Below are positions 8,155 to 41,269 of a stretch of DNA of 64,000 nt, piece after piece; within the stretch, counting starts at the first letter, position 1, and every line of letters begins with the position of its first letter. Source of the DNA: Deltaproteobacteria bacterium (GTDB lineage Bacteria > Myxococcota > Myxococcia > Myxococcales > SZAS-1); assembly GCA_018266075.1 (NCBI GenBank), contig JAFEBB010000024.1, positions 1 to 64,000 of the forward strand. The letters run 5' to 3'. The position numbers and the translations under genes were made by a program. A model generated the notes under the pieces. It was not told where the DNA came from. It ran no database searches and saw nothing but the letters and a program-made list of their open reading frames with translations.

Positions 8155-9524
8155 GCCGCGCGCTCGTTTGGCCGCTCGCTGCGCTGGTGTTCGCGGGGTG
8201 CGCGCACGGCAGCGCCGCCGGTGATGACTCCGCCGTCGACTCGGATCCGCTCGCCGCCGCCGAGAGCGCCAAGGCCGCCAACAAGCCCGACGAGGCCATC
8301 CACGATCTGCGTCAGGCGCTGAAGGCCGATCCGCACCGGCTCGACGCCTGGCGCTTGCTCGTGCAGGTGCACACCGAGGCCGGCCGGCTCGGCGAGCTGA
8401 CGAGCGACCTCAAGCAGAAGGCCGCCGCGCAGCCGAACGACGACGCGCTCCACTACGCGCTGGGCCTGGCCTACTTCGCCGAGAGCAAGACCGCCGGCGA
8501 CGCCGCGCTCACCGAGTTCCAGGCCGCGGAGAAGCTCAAGCCCACCGAGGCCGAGTATCCGTTCCGGCTCGGCGTGGCCTACTTCGAGCTCGAGCGCTGG
8601 GGCGACGCGCTGGCGCCGTTGCAGCGCGCGGTGCAGCTCGCGCCCAAGAACGCCAAGTACCACGTGCCGCTGGGGCTCGCGCTCGCCAAGCTGCAGAAGA
8701 AGCAGCAAGCGCTCGACGAGTTCCGCGCGCTGCTCGAGCTCTCGCCTTCGGGCAAGGACGTGAAGCTCGCCCAGCAGGCGCTCGAGCGGCTGGAAGACCC
8801 GCTGCGCGACATCCCCCAGGCGGAGGCCGACAACGTGCGCCGGGGCATCGACTGGCTGCACCAGGCCGACTCGCCGCAGCAGGCCATCGACCTCTTCCAG
8901 GACGTGCTCGACCGCTATCCGGACCTCGCGCCGGTGCACGTGCTGATTGGGCTCGCCTACGAGCGCCTCGACGACGCCGCGCCGGCCATCGAGCACCTCC
9001 AGCGCGCCATCGAGCTCGCGCCGGATGACGCGCAGGCCTACCTGTACCTGGGCGAGCTCTACTTCTCGAAGCAGAAGCCCGAGCGCGCCGTGGACTACTA
9101 CCAGAAGGCGCTCGCGCGGAACCCGCTGCTGGATCGCGCGTACGGCCGGCTCGGCGAGATCGCGGTGACCCGCAGCGACAGCACCGCGGCCATCGCCAAC
9201 TTCAAGATGCTCGTCGTTCTCAGCCCCGACGATCCGGGCGCGCACGTGGCCATGGCCCAGGCGTACGAGCTCGCCGGCCAGTACGACAGCGCCGAGCAAG
9301 AGCTGCGCGGCATCGTCGCGCGCGACCCGAAGAACCTCGACGCCGAGCTGAGGCTGGGCTTCCTCTGCGCCGCGCTGGCCAAGAAGGCGCCCACGTCGAC
9401 CGAGCGCGACATGCGGCAGAAGCAGGCCCAGGCCGCGTTCCAGAAGGTGCTCGACGTGCAGCCGGAGAACGTGGCCGCGAGCCGCGCTATCCAGGAGCTG
9501 CACGGCAGCGGCGTACCGCAGTGA
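8151..9524 (+). CDS. TPR-repeat lipoprotein
   Basis: 457 residues. The start is the ATG that overlaps the plsC stop in an ATGA junction. A signal peptide with lipobox VFAGC (Cys about residue 17) predicts a lipid anchor. The remainder is a near-continuous series of tetratricopeptide repeats, with units such as ALHYALGLAYFAESKT, PVHVLIGLAYERLDD and QAYLYLGELYFSKQK, which form a helical scaffold for protein-protein contacts. Coupling to plsC suggests the two products are needed together, perhaps in outer-membrane or lipid assembly, but no partner can be named. No catalytic domain is present. Confidence 0.85.
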   Translation: MSRALVWPLAALVFAGCAHGSAAGDDSAVDSDPLAAAESAKAANKPDEAIHDLRQALKADPHRLDAWRLLVQVHTEAGRLGELTSDLKQKAAAQPNDDALHYALGLAYFAESKTAGDAALTEFQAAEKLKPTEAEYPFRLGVAYFELERWGDALAPLQRAVQLAPKNAKYHVPLGLALAKLQKKQQALDEFRALLELSPSGKDVKLAQQALERLEDPLRDIPQAEADNVRRGIDWLHQADSPQQAIDLFQDVLDRYPDLAPVHVLIGLAYERLDDAAPAIEHLQRAIELAPDDAQAYLYLGELYFSKQKPERAVDYYQKALARNPLLDRAYGRLGEIAVTRSDSTAAIANFKMLVVLSPDDPGAHVAMAQAYELAGQYDSAEQELRGIVARDPKNLDAELRLGFLCAALAKKAPTSTERDMRQKQAQAAFQKVLDVQPENVAASRAIQELHGSGVPQ

Positions 9525-9527
9525 GAA

Positions 9528-9601
9528 TGGCTGGGGGACTAGGAATCGAACCTAGATAAGCAGATTCAAAGTCTGCCGTCCTGCCGTTAGACGATCCCCC
9601 A
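9528..9601 (-). tRNA. tRNA-Gln (anticodon UUG)
   Basis: Read on the minus strand, a 74-base cloverleaf including an encoded CCA end (complement of 9528-9530). The acceptor stem TGGGGGA pairs with TCCCCCA with discriminator G; the anticodon stem GCAGA/TCTGC encloses the loop CTTTGAA, giving anticodon TTG (glutamine). The T arm contains GGTTCGATTCC. The U1-A72 pair is typical of bacterial tRNA-Gln. It lies 40 bases downstream of gyrB on the same strand. Confidence 0.95.
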
Positions 9602-9641
9602 GCAGTGGGATCTCACCACGCGATTCCTGCCTGATGACGCG

Positions 9642-12166
<2,525 letters not shown>

Positions 12167-32300: not shown

Positions 32301-34382
32301 CTAGTTGTCCGGATGCTCGAGCCGCTTCTTCGCCTTCTGGTACAGCTCCTCGCTCGGCGAGGTCATGTCCATCACCGCGTGGTACAGCTTGCGCGCGCTC
32401 TCCGCATCGCGGGCCTCTTCTTCGTACGCTTGCAGGTACACGTCCTGCGCGCGCGCGTGCAGGCTCGTGAGGCCCTCCTTCGCAGTGGGCTCGCCCGGCT
32501 TGATCTGCAGCGCCTTGTTGAAGGCCTTGGCCGCGAGCGCGTAGTCCTGCCGCGCCGCCGCGTTGCGGCCCTTGATCACCAGCCCGCGCACCATGCGGTT
32601 CTTGATGCGGCTCATCAGCGGGCCCGTGGGCTCGATGTCCTCGAGCGCGGAGAGCGCCTTGTCGAGCGGCGCCACCTCGGCCTCGTAGTTCTGGTCGTTG
32701 TCGAGGCCGTCGGCGTCCTCCATGTTCTTGGAGAACGAGCGCACCTTGCCGGCGAGATCGCGGGCGCGCGTCCTCACCGCGGGGTTGTTGGTGCTCTCGG
32801 AGATGCGCTGGAACTCGTTGGCCGCGCGGTCGAAGCCGCCGGGCGAGTTGGCCTCCTGGAACTTGCGGAAGCCCGACGCCAGCTCCTGGCGCGTGGACTC
32901 GTCGGCCTTGCGCTTCTTGAGCTCCTTCATCATCCGCTCGCGCTGCTTCTTGTTCTTGATGTTCTTGAGCGCGGCGTTGTCGATGGCCGACTGCCGGTCG
33001 GAGATCAGCTTCTGCACCTGGTCGGCCTTGCCGGTGTCCATGGACTGCAGCTTGGGCAAGAGCGCGCGGGCGCCGTCGAGGTCGCCCGACTGCACCTTGA
33101 GCGCGGCCTGCCCGGCCAGGTAGTCGCTCTGCTGCTTGTCGAGGTTCTTGAGCTCGTCGGCGGCCTTGTCACCCACCAGCACGGAGTCGGTCCAGACCGC
33201 CTTCAGCTTGTCGCGGGCGTCGTCGTAGCGGTGCTCGGCGATCATGCCCTCGGCGGCCATGAAGTTCTCCTTGGCCTCCTTCTCCTTCTTGGTGCGCTCG
33301 CGCAGGTCGGACACGTCGCTGTTGGTGGGATCGAGCTTGGTGAGCTCGTCCCAGTCGGCGTTGGCCTTGTCGAAGTCGGCGGCCTGGAGCGCCGCCTTGC
33401 CGTCCTTCATGAGATCCGCGAGCTGCGTGTCGCTGGGCTGCGGCGCCAGCGGCTTGGCCGGTCCCGGAGGACGCAAGAGCATCACCAGCACGCCGCCGAG
33501 CACCAGCGCCACCGCCACGATGGCGAAGATGATGATCCCGCCGCCGCGCTTCTGGCCGGCGTTGGTGTGCATGTCGATCGACACCGCGCCGGTGGGTCCG
33601 TCGCGACGCGGCGGGGCTCCGCGCCGGGGCGGCGGCGCCTCGTCGTCGATGGGCTCTTCTTCGTCCGCGGGCTCGACGTCGGGCGGCGGCTCGGGCTGCT
33701 TGGGCCGGCGGCGCTCCTCGAGCGCGGCGATCTCGTCGATCACCTTGAGGATGGTGGTGCCGACCATGATCTCGTCGCCGTGGCCCACCTGCGCCTCGTC
33801 GATCTTCTGGCCGTTGACCTTGGTGCCGTTGCCGCTGCCCAGGTCGCGCACGATCGACCCGGACATGCCCACGATGATCTCCAGATGCCGCCGCGAGCTG
33901 GCGGTGTCGCGCAGCTTGAGGTCGCAGCCGTCGCCGCGGCCCACCACCATGCGGCCGCCGCGGACGCGCTTCTTGCGGCCGGCGTCGGCGCCCTCGATGA
34001 CCTCGATGGTGATGGGCGGGCCGGCGTGGGTGGCCTCGTTGTCGGGCGGGCCTTCGTTCTCGCCTTCGACGGAGTCGTCGTCAGCGCCGCTCGTATCGAG
34101 CATGCGGGTGTGGCCGACCTCGGGATCCTCGTCGCTCGCGGGACGCTGGCGAACGCCGGGGCGACTGGAGAGAGCGGAGCGGCTGGCGGGGCGGGCCTGG
34201 GCGCTGGAGCGCGAGCCCGGTCGGGCGCCGCTCACCACGCGGAGGTTGGAGCGGCTCGGACGCGGCAGCTCGTCCTCGGGAATTTCAGATTCGGCGGTGC
34301 CGGGGTGCTCGTCGGGTGGATCTTCGTCCGCCGGGCGCATCGCGCCACGCCGGGACCTCCCGCTGATGGGCCGGTCACTCAT
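32301..34382 (-). CDS. FHA domain membrane protein with TPR-like C terminus
   Basis: 693 residues. A disordered, acidic and Arg/Ser/Pro-rich N terminus (1-120), an FHA domain (122-217; VVGRGDGCDLKLRD, SSRRH, DLGSGNGTKVNG are the phosphothreonine-binding loops), a Pro-rich linker, one transmembrane helix (282-303), then about 390 residues of helical TPR-like repeats on the far side of the membrane. It is likely to recruit phosphorylated partners in the cytoplasm and hold a periplasmic scaffold. Partner kinases could be those at 36434 and 38448. The ATG lies near 34382. Confidence 0.88.
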   Translation of the reverse strand: MSDRPISGRSRRGAMRPADEDPPDEHPGTAESEIPEDELPRPSRSNLRVVSGARPGSRSSAQARPASRSALSSRPGVRQRPASDEDPEVGHTRMLDTSGADDDSVEGENEGPPDNEATHAGPPITIEVIEGADAGRKKRVRGGRMVVGRGDGCDLKLRDTASSRRHLEIIVGMSGSIVRDLGSGNGTKVNGQKIDEAQVGHGDEIMVGTTILKVIDEIAALEERRRPKQPEPPPDVEPADEEEPIDDEAPPPRRGAPPRRDGPTGAVSIDMHTNAGQKRGGGIIIFAIVAVALVLGGVLVMLLRPPGPAKPLAPQPSDTQLADLMKDGKAALQAADFDKANADWDELTKLDPTNSDVSDLRERTKKEKEAKENFMAAEGMIAEHRYDDARDKLKAVWTDSVLVGDKAADELKNLDKQQSDYLAGQAALKVQSGDLDGARALLPKLQSMDTGKADQVQKLISDRQSAIDNAALKNIKNKKQRERMMKELKKRKADESTRQELASGFRKFQEANSPGGFDRAANEFQRISESTNNPAVRTRARDLAGKVRSFSKNMEDADGLDNDQNYEAEVAPLDKALSALEDIEPTGPLMSRIKNRMVRGLVIKGRNAAARQDYALAAKAFNKALQIKPGEPTAKEGLTSLHARAQDVYLQAYEEEARDAESARKLYHAVMDMTSPSEELYQKAKKRLEHPDN

Positions 34383-34679: not shown

Positions 34680-34883
34680 ATGGAAACAATCAGGAAAGGT
34701 GTGCCACGCGTGCCGGTGCTCGTCAGCGTGCCCCGCCGCAACACCCCGGTGCGCATGGAGGCGGTCCCCGCCCCGCGCGCCAACAAGGTCTACGTGTGGC
34801 GCTCGCTGGTGCTGCGCCCGGACGAGTTCGAGGACATCGTCGCCGCCGGCCGCCGCCGGCCCCCGCTCAACCGGGGAAGGTGA
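34680..34883 (+). CDS. Small protein of unknown function
   Basis: 67 residues from the ATG at 34680, with GGAG close upstream. After the first seven codons nearly every codon ends in G or C, as in real genes here, which is why I accept it. The sequence is basic and Pro/Val-rich (VPRVPVLVSVPRRN), with a more structured end (KVYVWRSLVLRPDEFEDIV). No signal peptide or transmembrane helix. Its last 17 bases overlap the 3' end of the convergent outer-membrane protein gene. Unknown family; a conservation check would settle it. Confidence 0.5.
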   Translation: METIRKGVPRVPVLVSVPRRNTPVRMEAVPAPRANKVYVWRSLVLRPDEFEDIVAAGRRRPPLNRGR

Positions 34884-35550
34884 AGCCCACCTCGAGCCGC
34901 GGCAGCGCGGGCGAGTCGCCCTCGCGGAAGTGCAGGTCCAGCCCCACCAGCCCGTAGGCGTGCACCAGCGAGGAGCTGGAGTTGAGCTCCCCGCCCACGT
35001 AGAGCCCCAGGTTCGTGCCCCAGCTGTCGATCGAGCCGCCCGTGAGCGGCCCCGAGAGCTCCGGCTCCGTGGCGTAGGTGAACTGCACCTGGGCCACGCC
35101 AAAGATCGATCCCGATCGGCCGCGGCTGGAGACGATCGCCGACGGCTGCAGGCCCCAGTCGCGCAGGCCGGTGATGTGACGCGCGCCCGAGCCGCTCTCC
35201 GCGAAGGCCGGGTTGCGAAAGCCCGTCCACTGGCCCTGCAGCGAGAGCGCGAACGCCAGCGACTGGTCGCCCGCCACCCGGAGCTTGGGCCCGACGCCGA
35301 GCTGGGTGGCCGCGCCGTAGAGGGTGTCCACGTTGAAGTCGACGTCCATCGCGCGGGTCAACCCCACGCCGGCCATGCCCTGCACGTACGGAAAGCCCGC
35401 GGCCAGCGCGAAGCGCACCGAGCCCGGCCCCATGGCCTGGGCGTCGAAGAGGGAGTTGGTGGGCAGGTCGACCTGGCGCTTCACGGCGTCGCCAAACGCC
35501 GCGGGCACGGCGAGCACGAGCACCAGCGCGGTGGCGACGGCGCGAACCAT
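34867..35550 (-). CDS. Predicted outer-membrane beta-barrel protein
   Basis: 227 residues from the ATG at 35550, which gives a clean signal peptide (MVRAVATALVLVLAVPAAFG). The mature part alternates hydrophobic and polar residues in short strands (SVRFALAAGFPYVQG, LRVAGDQSLAFALSLQG, LGLYVGGELNSSSSL) and ends LPRLEVGFTFPG, with a near-terminal aromatic as in barrel proteins. No cysteines are evident in the mature part. The family is not recognised. It is divergent from the zinc-ribbon membrane protein gene at 35663. Confidence 0.65.
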   Translation of the reverse strand: MVRAVATALVLVLAVPAAFGDAVKRQVDLPTNSLFDAQAMGPGSVRFALAAGFPYVQGMAGVGLTRAMDVDFNVDTLYGAATQLGVGPKLRVAGDQSLAFALSLQGQWTGFRNPAFAESGSGARHITGLRDWGLQPSAIVSSRGRSGSIFGVAQVQFTYATEPELSGPLTGGSIDSWGTNLGLYVGGELNSSSSLVHAYGLVGLDLHFREGDSPALPRLEVGFTFPG

Positions 35551-35662
35551 GGCGCGCACTCTACCCCGGCCCGTGCGGCCAAGTGGAGCGGGCGCGGGCG
35601 CAACGTCTGGCGGTCCGCCGCCTTGACTCGCGACGAAAGCCCTTCTCATCATCGAGGTCCTC

Positions 35663-36415
35663 ATGCGGCCGTCCTACTGTGCGGAGTGCAACGGGCACCT
35701 CGACCCGTACCTGCCCGATTGCCCCCACTGCGGCGCGCACATCGAGCAGCACGACCGCGACGCGCACCACGACAAGGACATCCGCGTCCAGCGCGACGCG
35801 GGCGGCCGCGCCGTGGAGGTGCACCGCAAGTGGAAGGTGCACGTGCCCTGGGGCCTCTTCCTGCTGCTCGGGCTGTACTCGGCGGCGGCCTACGCCTACG
35901 TGCAGTACAGCGACCAGACCTCACCGCAGACCATCGCCGCGCAGCACCTCGCCGCCGCCGAGCAGATCCTGGGCAGCGACAACGGCGAGACCGCCAAGGC
36001 CGAGTCGCTCCAGCGCGCGTACGCGCACCTCATCGAGGCGCTCACCTTGACGCCCGAGGACAGCTGGGGCCAGCAGGAGCTGGAGAAGGTCACCTGGGCC
36101 ATGGCCCGCCGGGGCACCAAGCCGCCCGCGGAGCTCAAGCGCCGCGCCGACTTCATCGCCGCCTCGTGGCAGTCGATTCAGGCCGGCAAGCAGAGCCAGC
36201 TCCCCGAGAGCGCCAACGAGCGCTTCGGCTTCGACGCCATCGAGAGCAAGGCCGTGCGCCTGCAGCGCTACCTCTCCCTGGGCGGGGTGGTGATCTTTCT
36301 CCTGTGGATCTACCGCGAGTTCCAGGACTACAAATTCCTGCACAAGCGCGACGACGAGCACGAGCTCCTCCGCCGCGACGAGCTGCACGAGCTCGACGTT
36401 CATCGCCGCCGCTAG
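35663..36415 (+). CDS. Zinc-ribbon membrane protein
   Basis: 250 residues; GAGG lies 5 bases before the ATG. An N-terminal zinc ribbon (CAEC at 6-9 and CPHCG at 20-24) precedes a charged stretch, a transmembrane helix (about 62-80), a helical domain of about 115 residues and a second transmembrane helix (about 206-222), ending in a His/Asp/Arg-rich cytoplasmic tail (KRDDEHELLRRDELHEL). It is the first gene of a rightward trio with two Ser/Thr kinases (18 and 4 bases apart). The role is unknown; sensing or scaffolding for the kinases is inferred from position. Confidence 0.75.
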   Translation: MRPSYCAECNGHLDPYLPDCPHCGAHIEQHDRDAHHDKDIRVQRDAGGRAVEVHRKWKVHVPWGLFLLLGLYSAAAYAYVQYSDQTSPQTIAAQHLAAAEQILGSDNGETAKAESLQRAYAHLIEALTLTPEDSWGQQELEKVTWAMARRGTKPPAELKRRADFIAASWQSIQAGKQSQLPESANERFGFDAIESKAVRLQRYLSLGGVVIFLLWIYREFQDYKFLHKRDDEHELLRRDELHELDVHRRR

Positions 36416-36433
36416 AGAAAACGGAACGCCACC

Positions 36434-38443
<2,010 letters not shown>

Positions 38444-38447
38444 CGCC

Positions 38448-39983
38448 ATGGCCGACGAGCGGCTCCAGGTGGCGTCGCGCCCGGCCGAGGGTGGCACGTG
38501 CCCGGGCTGCGGCCAGACCGTGGACGGCGCGCGCTGCGCCTGGTGCGGCGTCGCGACATCACCGAATGGTTACGTCGTCGAGAAGGTGATCGCCCGCGGT
38601 CCGCACGGCCGCGTGTACCTCGCGCGCGACGCCGAGGGCCGAGCGGTGGCGCTCAAGGAGCTGCAGTTCGCGCAGGTGCCGACCACCGCCGAGATCGACG
38701 CGTTCGAGCGCGAAGCGGCCACGCTCGCGCAGCTCTCGCATCCGCGCATCCCGAAGTTTCTGCGGAGCTTCACGGAGGGCGTCGGCGTGGGGCTGCGGCT
38801 CTACCTTGCCGCTGAGCACGTGGCCGGCGAGCCGCTGTCCGCGCGCATCGCCCGAGCGCCGCTGACGGAAGCCGAAGCGCGCGACGTCGCCAAGCAGGTG
38901 CTGGAGGTGCTCGCGTTCCTGCACGGCCAGCGGCCCGCGCTCGTGCACCGCGACGTGAAGCCCGACAACCTGATCCTCCGCCCCGACGGTGGCGTGGCGC
39001 TGGTGGACTTCGGCACCGCGCGGGCGCTGAGCGGCACGCGCACCTTCGGATCGACGCTCGTGGGAACGTTCGGGTACATGCCGCCGGAGCAGCTCGGTGG
39101 AACCGTGGACCCGTCGAGCGATCTCTACGCGCTCGGCGCCACGCTGCTCCACGCGCTCTCCGGCAAGCCGCCCGGCGAGCTGCTGCGGCCGGATCTCGCG
39201 CTGGAGCTGCCCGCAAACGTGCCCGCGTCGCTGCGGCCGTTTCTGCTCGGGCTGCTCGAGCGTGATCCCAAGCTGCGCCTTCGCTCCGCGCAGGCCGCCC
39301 TGGACGTGCTCGAGGGCCGCAGCGTGCGCGCGCAGAAGCCGAAGGCCACGCGGCCGATCTTTCTCCTCTTTGGCGTCGCGGCGGTGGCGCTGGGAATCTC
39401 CGTCCTGGGCCTCAGCCTGGCGATCCGGCCGATGAACCTGGTGACGCTGCCCGTGCCGAGCCCGGACACGCGCGGGCTCCCGTACGGCAGCGACGCCGCC
39501 AAGCGCTGGTTCACGCAGCAGAAGCCGCGCTGCAACGCGCTCGAGGTCACCCAGGCCATTCGCCAGAGCCCGCCGCCACCAGGCTGGGACGGCGCGGGCT
39601 ACGCGGCCAGCTGCTACGCCCTCGCGGGGCGCGTGGATGACGCGCGGCGCACCCTCGCGCAGGTCGATCCGCGCGCGCAGCCCAACGCCGCCGCCATCCT
39701 CTTCGAGCTCGGCCATCCCATCGCCGACTCCGGCGACGATCTCTCCGCCGCGCAGATGATGAACCTGGTGCTCGAGTTCTGGCCGCAGAACTACCAGGCG
39801 CGCTACCACGCGGGCATGAGCGACTACGCGCTCGGGCACACCGAGCAGGCACGCGCAAACCTCGAGCGCTTCCTGCGCGAGTACCACCAGAACGACGGCT
39901 TCACCCGCGCCGCGCGCGAGGTCCTGAGCCGCATCCAGAATGGGCAAGCCTCCGACGGTGTGCGACGCGGTCCGCAAGAGTAG
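38448..39983 (+). CDS. Ser/Thr protein kinase with N-terminal zinc ribbon
   Basis: 511 residues. A zinc ribbon (CPGC at 18-21, CAWC at 30-33) precedes a complete kinase domain (about 42-300): Lys70 in VALKEL, HRDVKPDN, VDFGTARA and a GTFGYMPPEQ substrate loop. A transmembrane helix (about 308-328) follows, then an extracytoplasmic region of about 180 residues with TPR-like helices. The start is 4 bases after the previous gene, so the kinases are cotranscribed, and the same zinc-ribbon theme as the gene at 35663 suggests the ribbon mediates contacts inside this trio. A one-mismatch palindrome lies at 38559. Confidence 0.92.
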   Translation: MADERLQVASRPAEGGTCPGCGQTVDGARCAWCGVATSPNGYVVEKVIARGPHGRVYLARDAEGRAVALKELQFAQVPTTAEIDAFEREAATLAQLSHPRIPKFLRSFTEGVGVGLRLYLAAEHVAGEPLSARIARAPLTEAEARDVAKQVLEVLAFLHGQRPALVHRDVKPDNLILRPDGGVALVDFGTARALSGTRTFGSTLVGTFGYMPPEQLGGTVDPSSDLYALGATLLHALSGKPPGELLRPDLALELPANVPASLRPFLLGLLERDPKLRLRSAQAALDVLEGRSVRAQKPKATRPIFLLFGVAAVALGISVLGLSLAIRPMNLVTLPVPSPDTRGLPYGSDAAKRWFTQQKPRCNALEVTQAIRQSPPPPGWDGAGYAASCYALAGRVDDARRTLAQVDPRAQPNAAAILFELGHPIADSGDDLSAAQMMNLVLEFWPQNYQARYHAGMSDYALGHTEQARANLERFLREYHQNDGFTRAAREVLSRIQNGQASDGVRRGPQE

Positions 39984-40123: not shown

Positions 40124-41269
40124 ATGTCCAATCCGGATTCGCGCTCAACCCATGCACTCGCCGCGCTGCAGTCCGCGCTTCATGACGTGCGGCAGTCGCT
40201 GGCGCGTGGCGAGCTGGCGTCCGCGCTCGCCGAGCCCGAGCTGCGCGCCCTCGCGCAAGCGCTGGCCGACGAGTCTCACGCGCTGGGCGCCGAGCTGCAC
40301 GGCGCCCTCCTTCGCGAAGGATCCGCCACGCCGACGCCGGCTGCCAGACCCGGGGCGATCAGCGTGCTCGCCGTGGATGACGACCCCGTGGCCCTGGCGG
40401 CGCTCGCCGAGGTGCTCGCGCCCGAGTTCGAGGTCACCACCACCACCGACCCGTACCAGGCGCTTCACCTCGCCCGCGAGCGCGCGCCCGAGGCGATCCT
40501 CTGCGACCTGCGCATGCCCGGCCTCGACGGGCTGGCCCTGGTGCGCACCCTGCACGGCGACCCAACCACCCGCTCCATTCCGGTGCTGCTGGTCTCTGCC
40601 GAATCGGACATCCCCGAGAAGCTCCTCGCCTTCGAGGCGGGCGCCATCGACTACCTCACCAAGCCCGTCTCGGTGGACGAGCTCGCCGCCCGCCTGCGCT
40701 CCGCGGTGCAGCGGGGGCGCGAGCTGCGCCATGGCCGCGAGCTTCAGGAGACCGACGAGCTCACCGGGCTCACCAATCGCCGCGGGTTCCGCACGTTCCT
40801 CTCGGAGGCCATCCGCAGCGCCGTCGAGGGTGGGCGACCGCTGGCGGTGGCCATGCTCGACCAGGACGGACTCAAGGCCATCAACGACACGCTGGGGCAC
40901 GCCGCCGGCGACGCGGCGCTGCGGCTCCTGGCGAGCACCCTCCGGAAGGTGAAGCGCGACGCCGACTGCGCTTGCCGCCTGGGAGGCGATGAGTTCGCGC
41001 TGGTGATGCCGGGCGCCGATCTCGCCGGTGCCAGCCGCGCTCTGGAGCGCCTGGAGCGTGAGCTCGCCGCCACGCCGCTCGCGCTCGAGAACGAGGCGCG
41101 CATCCTCCTGCGCGCGAGCGTGGGCATCGCCCAGCTCGACGCCTTCGATGACCTGCGGGGTGACTCGCTCCTGGGTCGCGCCGATGCAGCGCTCTACGAG
41201 ATGAAGCGCCGCCACCACGGCGAGGCGCCGCGGCCGCGGACCGGCGAGCTCCAGCGCGTCGGCAGTTGA
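40124..41269 (+). CDS. Response regulator diguanylate cyclase (REC-GGDEF)
   Basis: 381 residues. A helical N-terminal segment (1-75), an REC domain (79-200; DDD at 85-87, phosphoacceptor D128 in LCDLRMPGLDG, Lys in YLTKPV) and a GGDEF domain (about 212-370). The active site CRLGGDEFALVM is intact, and RDAD lies five residues before it, matching the RxxD product-inhibition I-site. Phosphorylation should therefore control c-di-GMP synthesis from two GTP. No histidine kinase is adjacent. Together with the cyclase at 53000 and the PilZ protein at 44365 it forms the c-di-GMP theme. Confidence 0.93.
   Translation: MSNPDSRSTHALAALQSALHDVRQSLARGELASALAEPELRALAQALADESHALGAELHGALLREGSATPTPAARPGAISVLAVDDDPVALAALAEVLAPEFEVTTTTDPYQALHLARERAPEAILCDLRMPGLDGLALVRTLHGDPTTRSIPVLLVSAESDIPEKLLAFEAGAIDYLTKPVSVDELAARLRSAVQRGRELRHGRELQETDELTGLTNRRGFRTFLSEAIRSAVEGGRPLAVAMLDQDGLKAINDTLGHAAGDAALRLLASTLRKVKRDADCACRLGGDEFALVMPGADLAGASRALERLERELAATPLALENEARILLRASVGIAQLDAFDDLRGDSLLGRADAALYEMKRRHHGEAPRPRTGELQRVGS

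What the first reader, a model, noticed from the sequence alone, without database searches (positions are those of the whole stretch)
35663..39983. Kinase trio with two zinc ribbons
A zinc-ribbon membrane protein, a TPR-tailed Ser/Thr kinase with HRDFNPDN and a zinc-ribbon kinase with HRDVKPDN are packed with 18- and 4-base gaps. The repeat of N-terminal zinc ribbons suggests they mediate assembly of a membrane kinase complex that detects envelope state through the TPR-like outer domains.
Basis: partly seen in the sequence, partly recalled or inferred. Interest (0 to 1): 0.5.

Follow-up and report, generated by a model that had tools for sequence, protein, structure and literature searches.

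The report
Three unrelated signalling genes side by side
Three tightly packed genes of a myxobacterium-like bacterium encode a small zinc-ribbon membrane protein and two unrelated protein kinases; in the relatives examined these genes lie apart, and the small membrane protein mostly sits beside cell-wall recycling genes, which is the real lead.

Summary
The three genes, the 18- and 4-base gaps, both zinc ribbons and the HRDFNPDN and HRDVKPDN motifs are there. The trio as a conserved unit is not: in no relative's locus examined are these three families together, and G094, which has all three, carries them on three contigs. P0002 belongs to an old HRDF(T/N)P(D/S)N kinase clade found without the other two. 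P0003 belongs to a distant zinc-ribbon kinase clade that keeps its four Cys whatever lies next door. Asn for Lys is ordinary: 18 of 32 readable kinase motifs sampled in this genome lack that Lys. P0001 belongs to a family with no solid Pfam or NCBIfam match; in 21 of 23 relatives' loci it lies next to an LD-carboxypeptidase (muropeptide recycling), then a beta-lactamase-fold hydrolase and, wherever the contig goes on, Mpl. In one relative (G001) a different kinase follows it. Best reading: a genome-specific, probably co-transcribed cluster of three old, independent genes, in which a membrane protein tied by descent to peptidoglycan recycling may work with two transmembrane kinases that have predicted outer TPR-type domains. 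The zinc ribbons look intrinsic to each protein, not assembly tags. No interaction or function was tested.

The parts
35663..36415 (+). P0001, 250 aa: zinc ribbon, TM, about 110-residue helical loop, TM, charged tail; member of a Myxococcota family without a solid Pfam or NCBIfam match
35678..35731 (+). P0001 zinc ribbon C6-x2-C9 ... C20-x2-C23
   Evidence: sequence; shared with L045, L046, L141
35852..35902 (+). P0001 TM segment 1 (residues 64-80)
35924..36181 (+). P0001 four-helix region between the TMs (residues 88-173; model pLDDT mostly 85-94, 77 at its end); TPR-like only by my reading of helix lengths
36260..36310 (+). P0001 TM segment 2 (residues 200-216)
36434..38443 (+). P0002, 669 aa transmembrane Ser/Thr kinase with TPR tail, GTG start
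36458..37264 (+). P0002 kinase domain
36863..36886 (+). HRDFNPDN catalytic loop of P0002 (residues 144-151)
   Evidence: sequence
37562..37618 (+). P0002 TM (residues 377-395)
37637..38440 (+). P0002 TPR region (residues 402-669), predicted outside by inference from the single TM
38448..39983 (+). P0003, 511 aa zinc-ribbon Ser/Thr kinase with TM and C-terminal helical domain
38499..38546 (+). P0003 zinc ribbon, C18, C21, C30, C33; invariant in the 11 rows of A4
38571..39296 (+). P0003 kinase domain
38946..38969 (+). HRDVKPDN catalytic loop of P0003 (residues 167-174)
   Evidence: sequence
39357..39413 (+). P0003 TM (residues 304-322)
39492..39938 (+). P0003 C-terminal helical (TPR-like) domain, residues 349-497, shared by the full-length orthologues
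34867..35664 (-). P0004, divergent neighbour, no family match; the listed ATG overlaps P0001's start by 2 bp; a start at 35550 before a signal-like segment is more likely

Best explanation
The trio is a genome-specific, probably co-transcribed cluster of three old genes of separate descent. P0002 and P0003 are active-looking transmembrane Ser/Thr kinases from two distant lineages, each with a predicted outer TPR-type domain. P0001 is a two-TM protein of a Myxococcota family whose usual neighbours are muropeptide-recycling genes (ldcA, a beta-lactamase-fold hydrolase, mpl); here it lies apart from them. Most likely mechanism: P0001 and the outer TPR domains bind envelope or peptidoglycan-linked ligands, and the kinases turn this into phosphorylation in the cytoplasm; each zinc ribbon works within its own protein (for P0003 by analogy with the rubredoxin-like domain of PknG, which limits access to the kinase's substrate site). 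Shown: anatomy, family membership, neighbours in relatives, absence of the trio in the loci examined. Inferred: co-transcription, topology, ligand, any cooperation.
For: Tight spacing on one strand. P0002 lies in a 17-row clade with HRDF(T/N)P(D/S)N (99/92), P0003 in a 13-row zinc-ribbon clade (100/100), far apart in a tree of 83 rows (the bootstrap had not fully settled). P0001's family is in 27 of 195 phylum genomes, its own included; LdcA is the next gene in 21 of 23 loci examined. G001's LdcA and hydrolase and G052's Mpl are over the Pfam cut-offs for Peptidase_S66, Beta-lactamase and Mur ligase domains. In this genome the best LdcA and Mpl matches lie on other contigs, C10 and C3. The five other full-length or nearly full-length P0003 orthologues show no P0001 or P0002 relative beside them, nor do 16 P0002-family loci show P0001 or a zinc-ribbon kinase.
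Against: No expression or interaction data. Adjacency in one genome can be chance. P0003's TPR evidence is weak (TPR_19 27 bits against a cut-off of 25, TPR_6 below its cut-off). The link of P0001 to recycling rests on neighbours only, and two relatives with the zinc ribbon (L046, L049) do not have it. G001's LdcA and G052's Mpl stay below NCBIfam's equivalog cut-offs (136 against 378, 371 against 389 bits). P0001's model, from one sequence, has no significant fold match.
Confidence: 0.55

Rival explanations
1. A true membrane kinase complex, assembled through the zinc ribbons.
For: Tight gaps; two proteins with N-terminal ribbons; in G001 the P0001 homologue is also followed by a kinase gene, about 119 bp downstream if its ATG is right.
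Against: The G001 kinase is a different one (cNMP-binding domain plus kinase; Pfam shows no TPR or ribbon at E 1e-5). The ribbons persist without the partners. No trio in the loci examined. G094 has all three families on different contigs.
Confidence: 0.12
2. Chance neighbours: kinases are so many in this genome (116 domain places) that one or two land beside any gene; each protein works alone.
For: Kinase pairs are within the range of random placement. A kinase is next to a P0001-family gene in only 1 of 23 relatives' loci. The two kinases are of distant lineages.
Against: 4- and 18-base gaps on one strand favour co-transcription, which usually implies some shared use.
Confidence: 0.28
3. P0003 is a PknG-type kinase (metal-binding domain, kinase, TPR) and P0001 its GlnX-like membrane partner, working in nutrient sensing.
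For: Same domain order; Foldseek alignments to PknG 2PZI span 607 and 570 columns, gaps included; PknG is reported to work with the membrane protein GlnX from the same operon (passages of PMC8546545 and PMC6069109).
Against: P0003 has a TM between kinase and TPR, and PknG is reported to have none. Its kinase domain is nearest to PknA, StkP and PknB among bacterial solved chains. The TM-score to PknG (0.39) is no better than to kinase-only chains and the rmsd is 26-29, so only the order of domains agrees. No solute-binding lipoprotein in the trio; P0001 has no GlnX-like Pfam match.
Confidence: 0.05

Closest known systems
PknG with GlnX and GlnH of Actinobacteria
   Same: Order metal-binding CxxC pair, kinase, TPR; membrane protein gene in the same gene cluster (passages)
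   Different: P0003 carries a TM so its TPR would be outside; kinase domain nearer PknA/PknB; no GlnH; P0001 not recognisably GlnX
Transmembrane TPR Ser/Thr kinases of bacteria
   Same: P0002 has kinase, TM and TPR; TPR is named first among the domains most often tethered to prokaryotic kinases (passage of PMC2877116)
   Different: P0002 belongs to a distinct HRDF(T/N)P(D/S)N clade of myxobacteria
ldcA / beta-lactamase-fold hydrolase / mpl clusters of Myxococcota (found here)
   Same: Home of most P0001-family genes (21 of 23 loci)
   Different: P0001 of the window lies elsewhere, beside kinases

Membership tests
Hanks-type Ser/Thr kinase (PF00069) | Kinase domain over Pfam cut-off with HRD Asp/Asn and DFG | tested here: met
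   127 and 130 bits against 31.7 for P0002 and P0003; HRD..P.N and DFG read
Hanks-type Ser/Thr kinase (PF00069) | Kinase activity | not testable with these tools
   needs an assay
Zinc-ribbon kinase clade of Myxococcota (defined here) | Four Cys before the kinase domain and common descent of the kinase | tested here: met
   4 Cys invariant in the 11 rows chosen for A4 and a ribbon in 16 of 17 distinct loci read (L051 lacks its N-terminus, L123 read by eye as its spacing is longer, L063 and L064 gave no reading); clade of 13 rows 100/100
PknG | Metal-binding CxxC pair before kinase and TPR after it | tested here: met
   sequence; TPR_19 just over cut-off; helices in the model
PknG | No transmembrane segment | tested here: not met
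   TM 304-322, hydropathy 2.61
PknG | Kinase domain nearest to PknG | tested here: not met
   best solved relatives by sequence are PknA and StkP, PknG not among the 60 shown; PknG at rank 12 by Foldseek
GlnX | Periplasmic 4HB_MCP-type bundles | tested here: inconclusive
   no such Pfam match in P0001; one short region between two TMs
LdcA-linked membrane protein family (defined here) | Sequence relation to the A1/A3 family | tested here: met
   36% to G001 over residues 2-250, E 7.1e-39; profile search
LdcA-linked membrane protein family (defined here) | LdcA next door | tested here: not met
   the best LdcA match of this genome is on contig C10, not C24

The most novel reading that the evidence does not exclude
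P0001's family is an undescribed inner-membrane reader of peptidoglycan turnover, kept beside ldcA, a beta-lactamase-fold hydrolase and mpl in Myxococcota, and it has twice been coupled to Ser/Thr kinases (here to a TPR kinase and a zinc-ribbon kinase, in G001 to a cyclic-nucleotide-binding kinase), linking muropeptide recycling to kinase signalling.
Probability: 0.15. Interest if true: 0.6.

Novelty: new member of a known kind. Interest (0 to 1): 0.33.

Why it matters
The trio itself is an ordinary, lineage-specific grouping in a genome full of kinases. What could matter is the unnamed P0001 family: a small membrane protein kept beside muropeptide-recycling genes in two orders of one class is a testable candidate for a step or a sensor in peptidoglycan recycling, and its place before kinases in two genomes suggests a route by which cell-wall turnover could reach the large kinase networks of these bacteria.

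Tried and rejected
Conserved trio: rejected for the loci examined. P0002 and P0003 as recent duplicates of each other: rejected by the tree. HRDFNPDN as a rare or dead kinase: rejected as rare (K 14, S 16, N 2 in the 32 readable motifs of 37 places, picked by hand down the ranking of 116, not at random), and the clade's other members read HRDFTPDN or HRDFNPSN; activity itself is untested. Fold of P0001 by structure: single-sequence model, best PDB match E 0.21. P0001 by sequence in PDB: one chance match, E 1.2. P0001 family by profile libraries: weak matches only, DUF4381 in 5 of 23 members (best E 1.7e-4) and GspM/XpsM in 3 of 23 (best E 9e-5), P0001 itself none at E 0.01; not followed up. 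PknG was not among the 50 entries of the VIA list for P0003, which proves nothing. Papers: only search listings with the starts of abstracts; passages by 'find' in PMC2877116, PMC8546545 and PMC6069109. 'Zinc ribbon' with 'Hanks-type' found no paper, with 'myxococc' and 'protein kinase' one, on conflict systems. I saw no paper on P0001's family, but only the searches came near it.

Full report
What is there. The window is contig C24 of a 7.84 Mb, 166-contig genome at about 70% GC. The three best named matches to P0003 are two MAGs titled Myxococcaceae and one titled Deltaproteobacteria; two weaker ones are from other phyla. Two of these contigs have the same lengths as contigs of G149 and G150, both of family f3, which I therefore call Myxococcaceae. 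The three genes lie at 35663-36415, 36434-38443 and 38448-39983 with gaps of 18 and 4 bases. P0001 has a zinc ribbon and two hydrophobic segments; P0002 is kinase-TM-TPR; P0003 is zinc ribbon-kinase-TM-helical domain. A promoter-like match at 35623-35652 precedes P0001 (1 found, 0.2 expected), and the two terminator-like sites found are on the other strand and no more than chance gives; such scans are weak evidence in a GC-rich genome.

Is it more than chance? The genes are real. Two kinases in a row are not unusual: 116 kinase-domain places give 6 same-strand pairs within 2.5 kb, this pair included and two of them inside one frame, against a mean of 2.8 and a maximum of 10 in random placements.

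Gene order elsewhere. Among 60 relatives of the order P0001 is found in 6 by the tool's tally, its own genome apparently counted; with a family profile it is found in 27 of 195 genomes of the phylum, its own included. I fetched 23 of the other 26 loci. A kinase lies next to the P0001 homologue in 1 of 23, G001 (L045): it starts about 119 bp downstream and has a cNMP-binding domain plus kinase, HRDVKPAN. L142 has a kinase about 6 kb away. Of 16 P0002-family loci (L073-L088) none shows a P0001 or zinc-ribbon kinase relative; many have another kinase, HRDLKPAN, some 5 kb on. Of the five other genomes with a full-length or nearly full-length P0003 (G013, G026, G094, G149, G150) none shows P0001 or P0002 relatives beside it. 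G094 has all three families, on contigs C117, C132 and C64. The 60 relatives hold no second genome of the window's own family, so conservation at short range is untested.

The kinases. A tree of 83 kinase domains puts P0002 with G008's HRDFNPSN kinase and 15 HRDFTPDN kinases of f3 (99/92), and P0003 with L050 and L051 (100/98) inside a 13-row zinc-ribbon clade (100/100); the bootstrap had not quite settled. The ribbon is present in 16 of 17 distinct loci of this kinase group that could be read, and its four Cys are invariant in the 11 rows aligned, while C-termini differ. At the Lys position of HRDxK, 37 of 116 places sampled by hand gave 32 readable motifs: K 14, S 16, N 2. So the Asn in P0002 is an ordinary feature here. 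In G008 the P0002 orthologue follows a TPR protein gene by 12 bases, another partner again.

P0001. It has no family match over threshold; across the 23-row family only weak matches appear (DUF4381 in 5, GspM/XpsM in 3), and there is no PDB relative. The alignment shows P-W/Y-G-L before the first TM, a conserved L-G segment after it and a W in the second TM. The zinc ribbon occurs in 4 of 23 rows (P0001, L045, L046, and L141 of another order) and in L049 outside the alignment, but in none of the 18 rows of f3; presence in two orders suggests that it is ancestral and was lost. The neighbours are the surprise: in 21 of 23 loci the next gene is an LD-carboxypeptidase, within about 100 bp by my gene starts (about 300 in L045), with a beta-lactamase-fold hydrolase beyond it in all 21, and Mpl in the 17 whose contig goes on past the hydrolase. 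The names rest on Pfam for one member of each (NCBIfam scores stay under its equivalog cut-offs), the rest on tblastn. In f3 and G001 ldcA is divergent; in L141 and L142, of another order, it is co-directional, about 45-70 bases upstream. L046 and L049 have another gene there, a folylpolyglutamate-synthase-like one by my reading, untested. In the window's genome the best LdcA match is on C10 and the best Mpl match on C3, so P0001, found once, lies outside that setting.

Mechanism. I think the three genes are co-transcribed, that P0001 is tied by descent to peptidoglycan turnover, and that the outer domains of the two kinases read something in the periplasm. Zinc ribbons most likely act within each protein. 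For P0003 the nearest model is PknG, where the rubredoxin-like domain limits substrate access and a membrane protein of the same operon is proposed to pass on the signal (passages of PMC8546545 and PMC6069109). Foldseek aligns P0003's model to PknG across 607 and 570 columns, gaps included, but with rmsd 26-29 and a TM-score no better than to kinase-only chains, and P0003 has a TM that PknG lacks. It may work in part like PknG; it is not a member.

Verdict. Observation confirmed; interpretation partly supported. The trio is a genome-specific grouping of known kinds of gene. The lead worth keeping is P0001's family beside muropeptide-recycling genes.

Noticed in passing
L045, L047, L048, L127-L144: P0001-family gene beside ldcA and a beta-lactamase-fold hydrolase in 21 of 23 loci, and mpl in 17; an undescribed candidate in peptidoglycan recycling.
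   Followed up: partly
L045:4506-4730 (+) and L046:7536-7856 (-): A small conserved protein with one hydrophobic segment and the motif SLRGGF lies convergent to, or just beyond, the P0001 homologue in G001 and G009; no match to the motif in the window.
   Followed up: no
L123:9818-11602 (+): A kinase of the zinc-ribbon group whose N-terminus looks, by eye, like an anti-sigma zinc finger, with a possible sigma-factor gene just upstream at 9171-9821.
   Followed up: no
L242:7692-10028 (+), own genome contig C3: A further kinase with an N-terminal CxxC pair, two genes from mpl, in the window's own genome, so this architecture recurs in the genome.
   Followed up: no
32301-34382 (-): Protein with an FHA domain over cut-off, a TM and a weak TPR match, second gene upstream of the trio on the other strand; a possible phosphothreonine reader, link untested.
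   Followed up: no
34867-35664 (-): The listed start overlaps P0001's start by 2 bp; a signal-like segment starts at the ATG at 35550, leaving about 110 bp for divergent promoters.
   Followed up: partly
40124-41269 (+): Response regulator receiver plus GGDEF protein 140 bp downstream of the trio.
   Followed up: no
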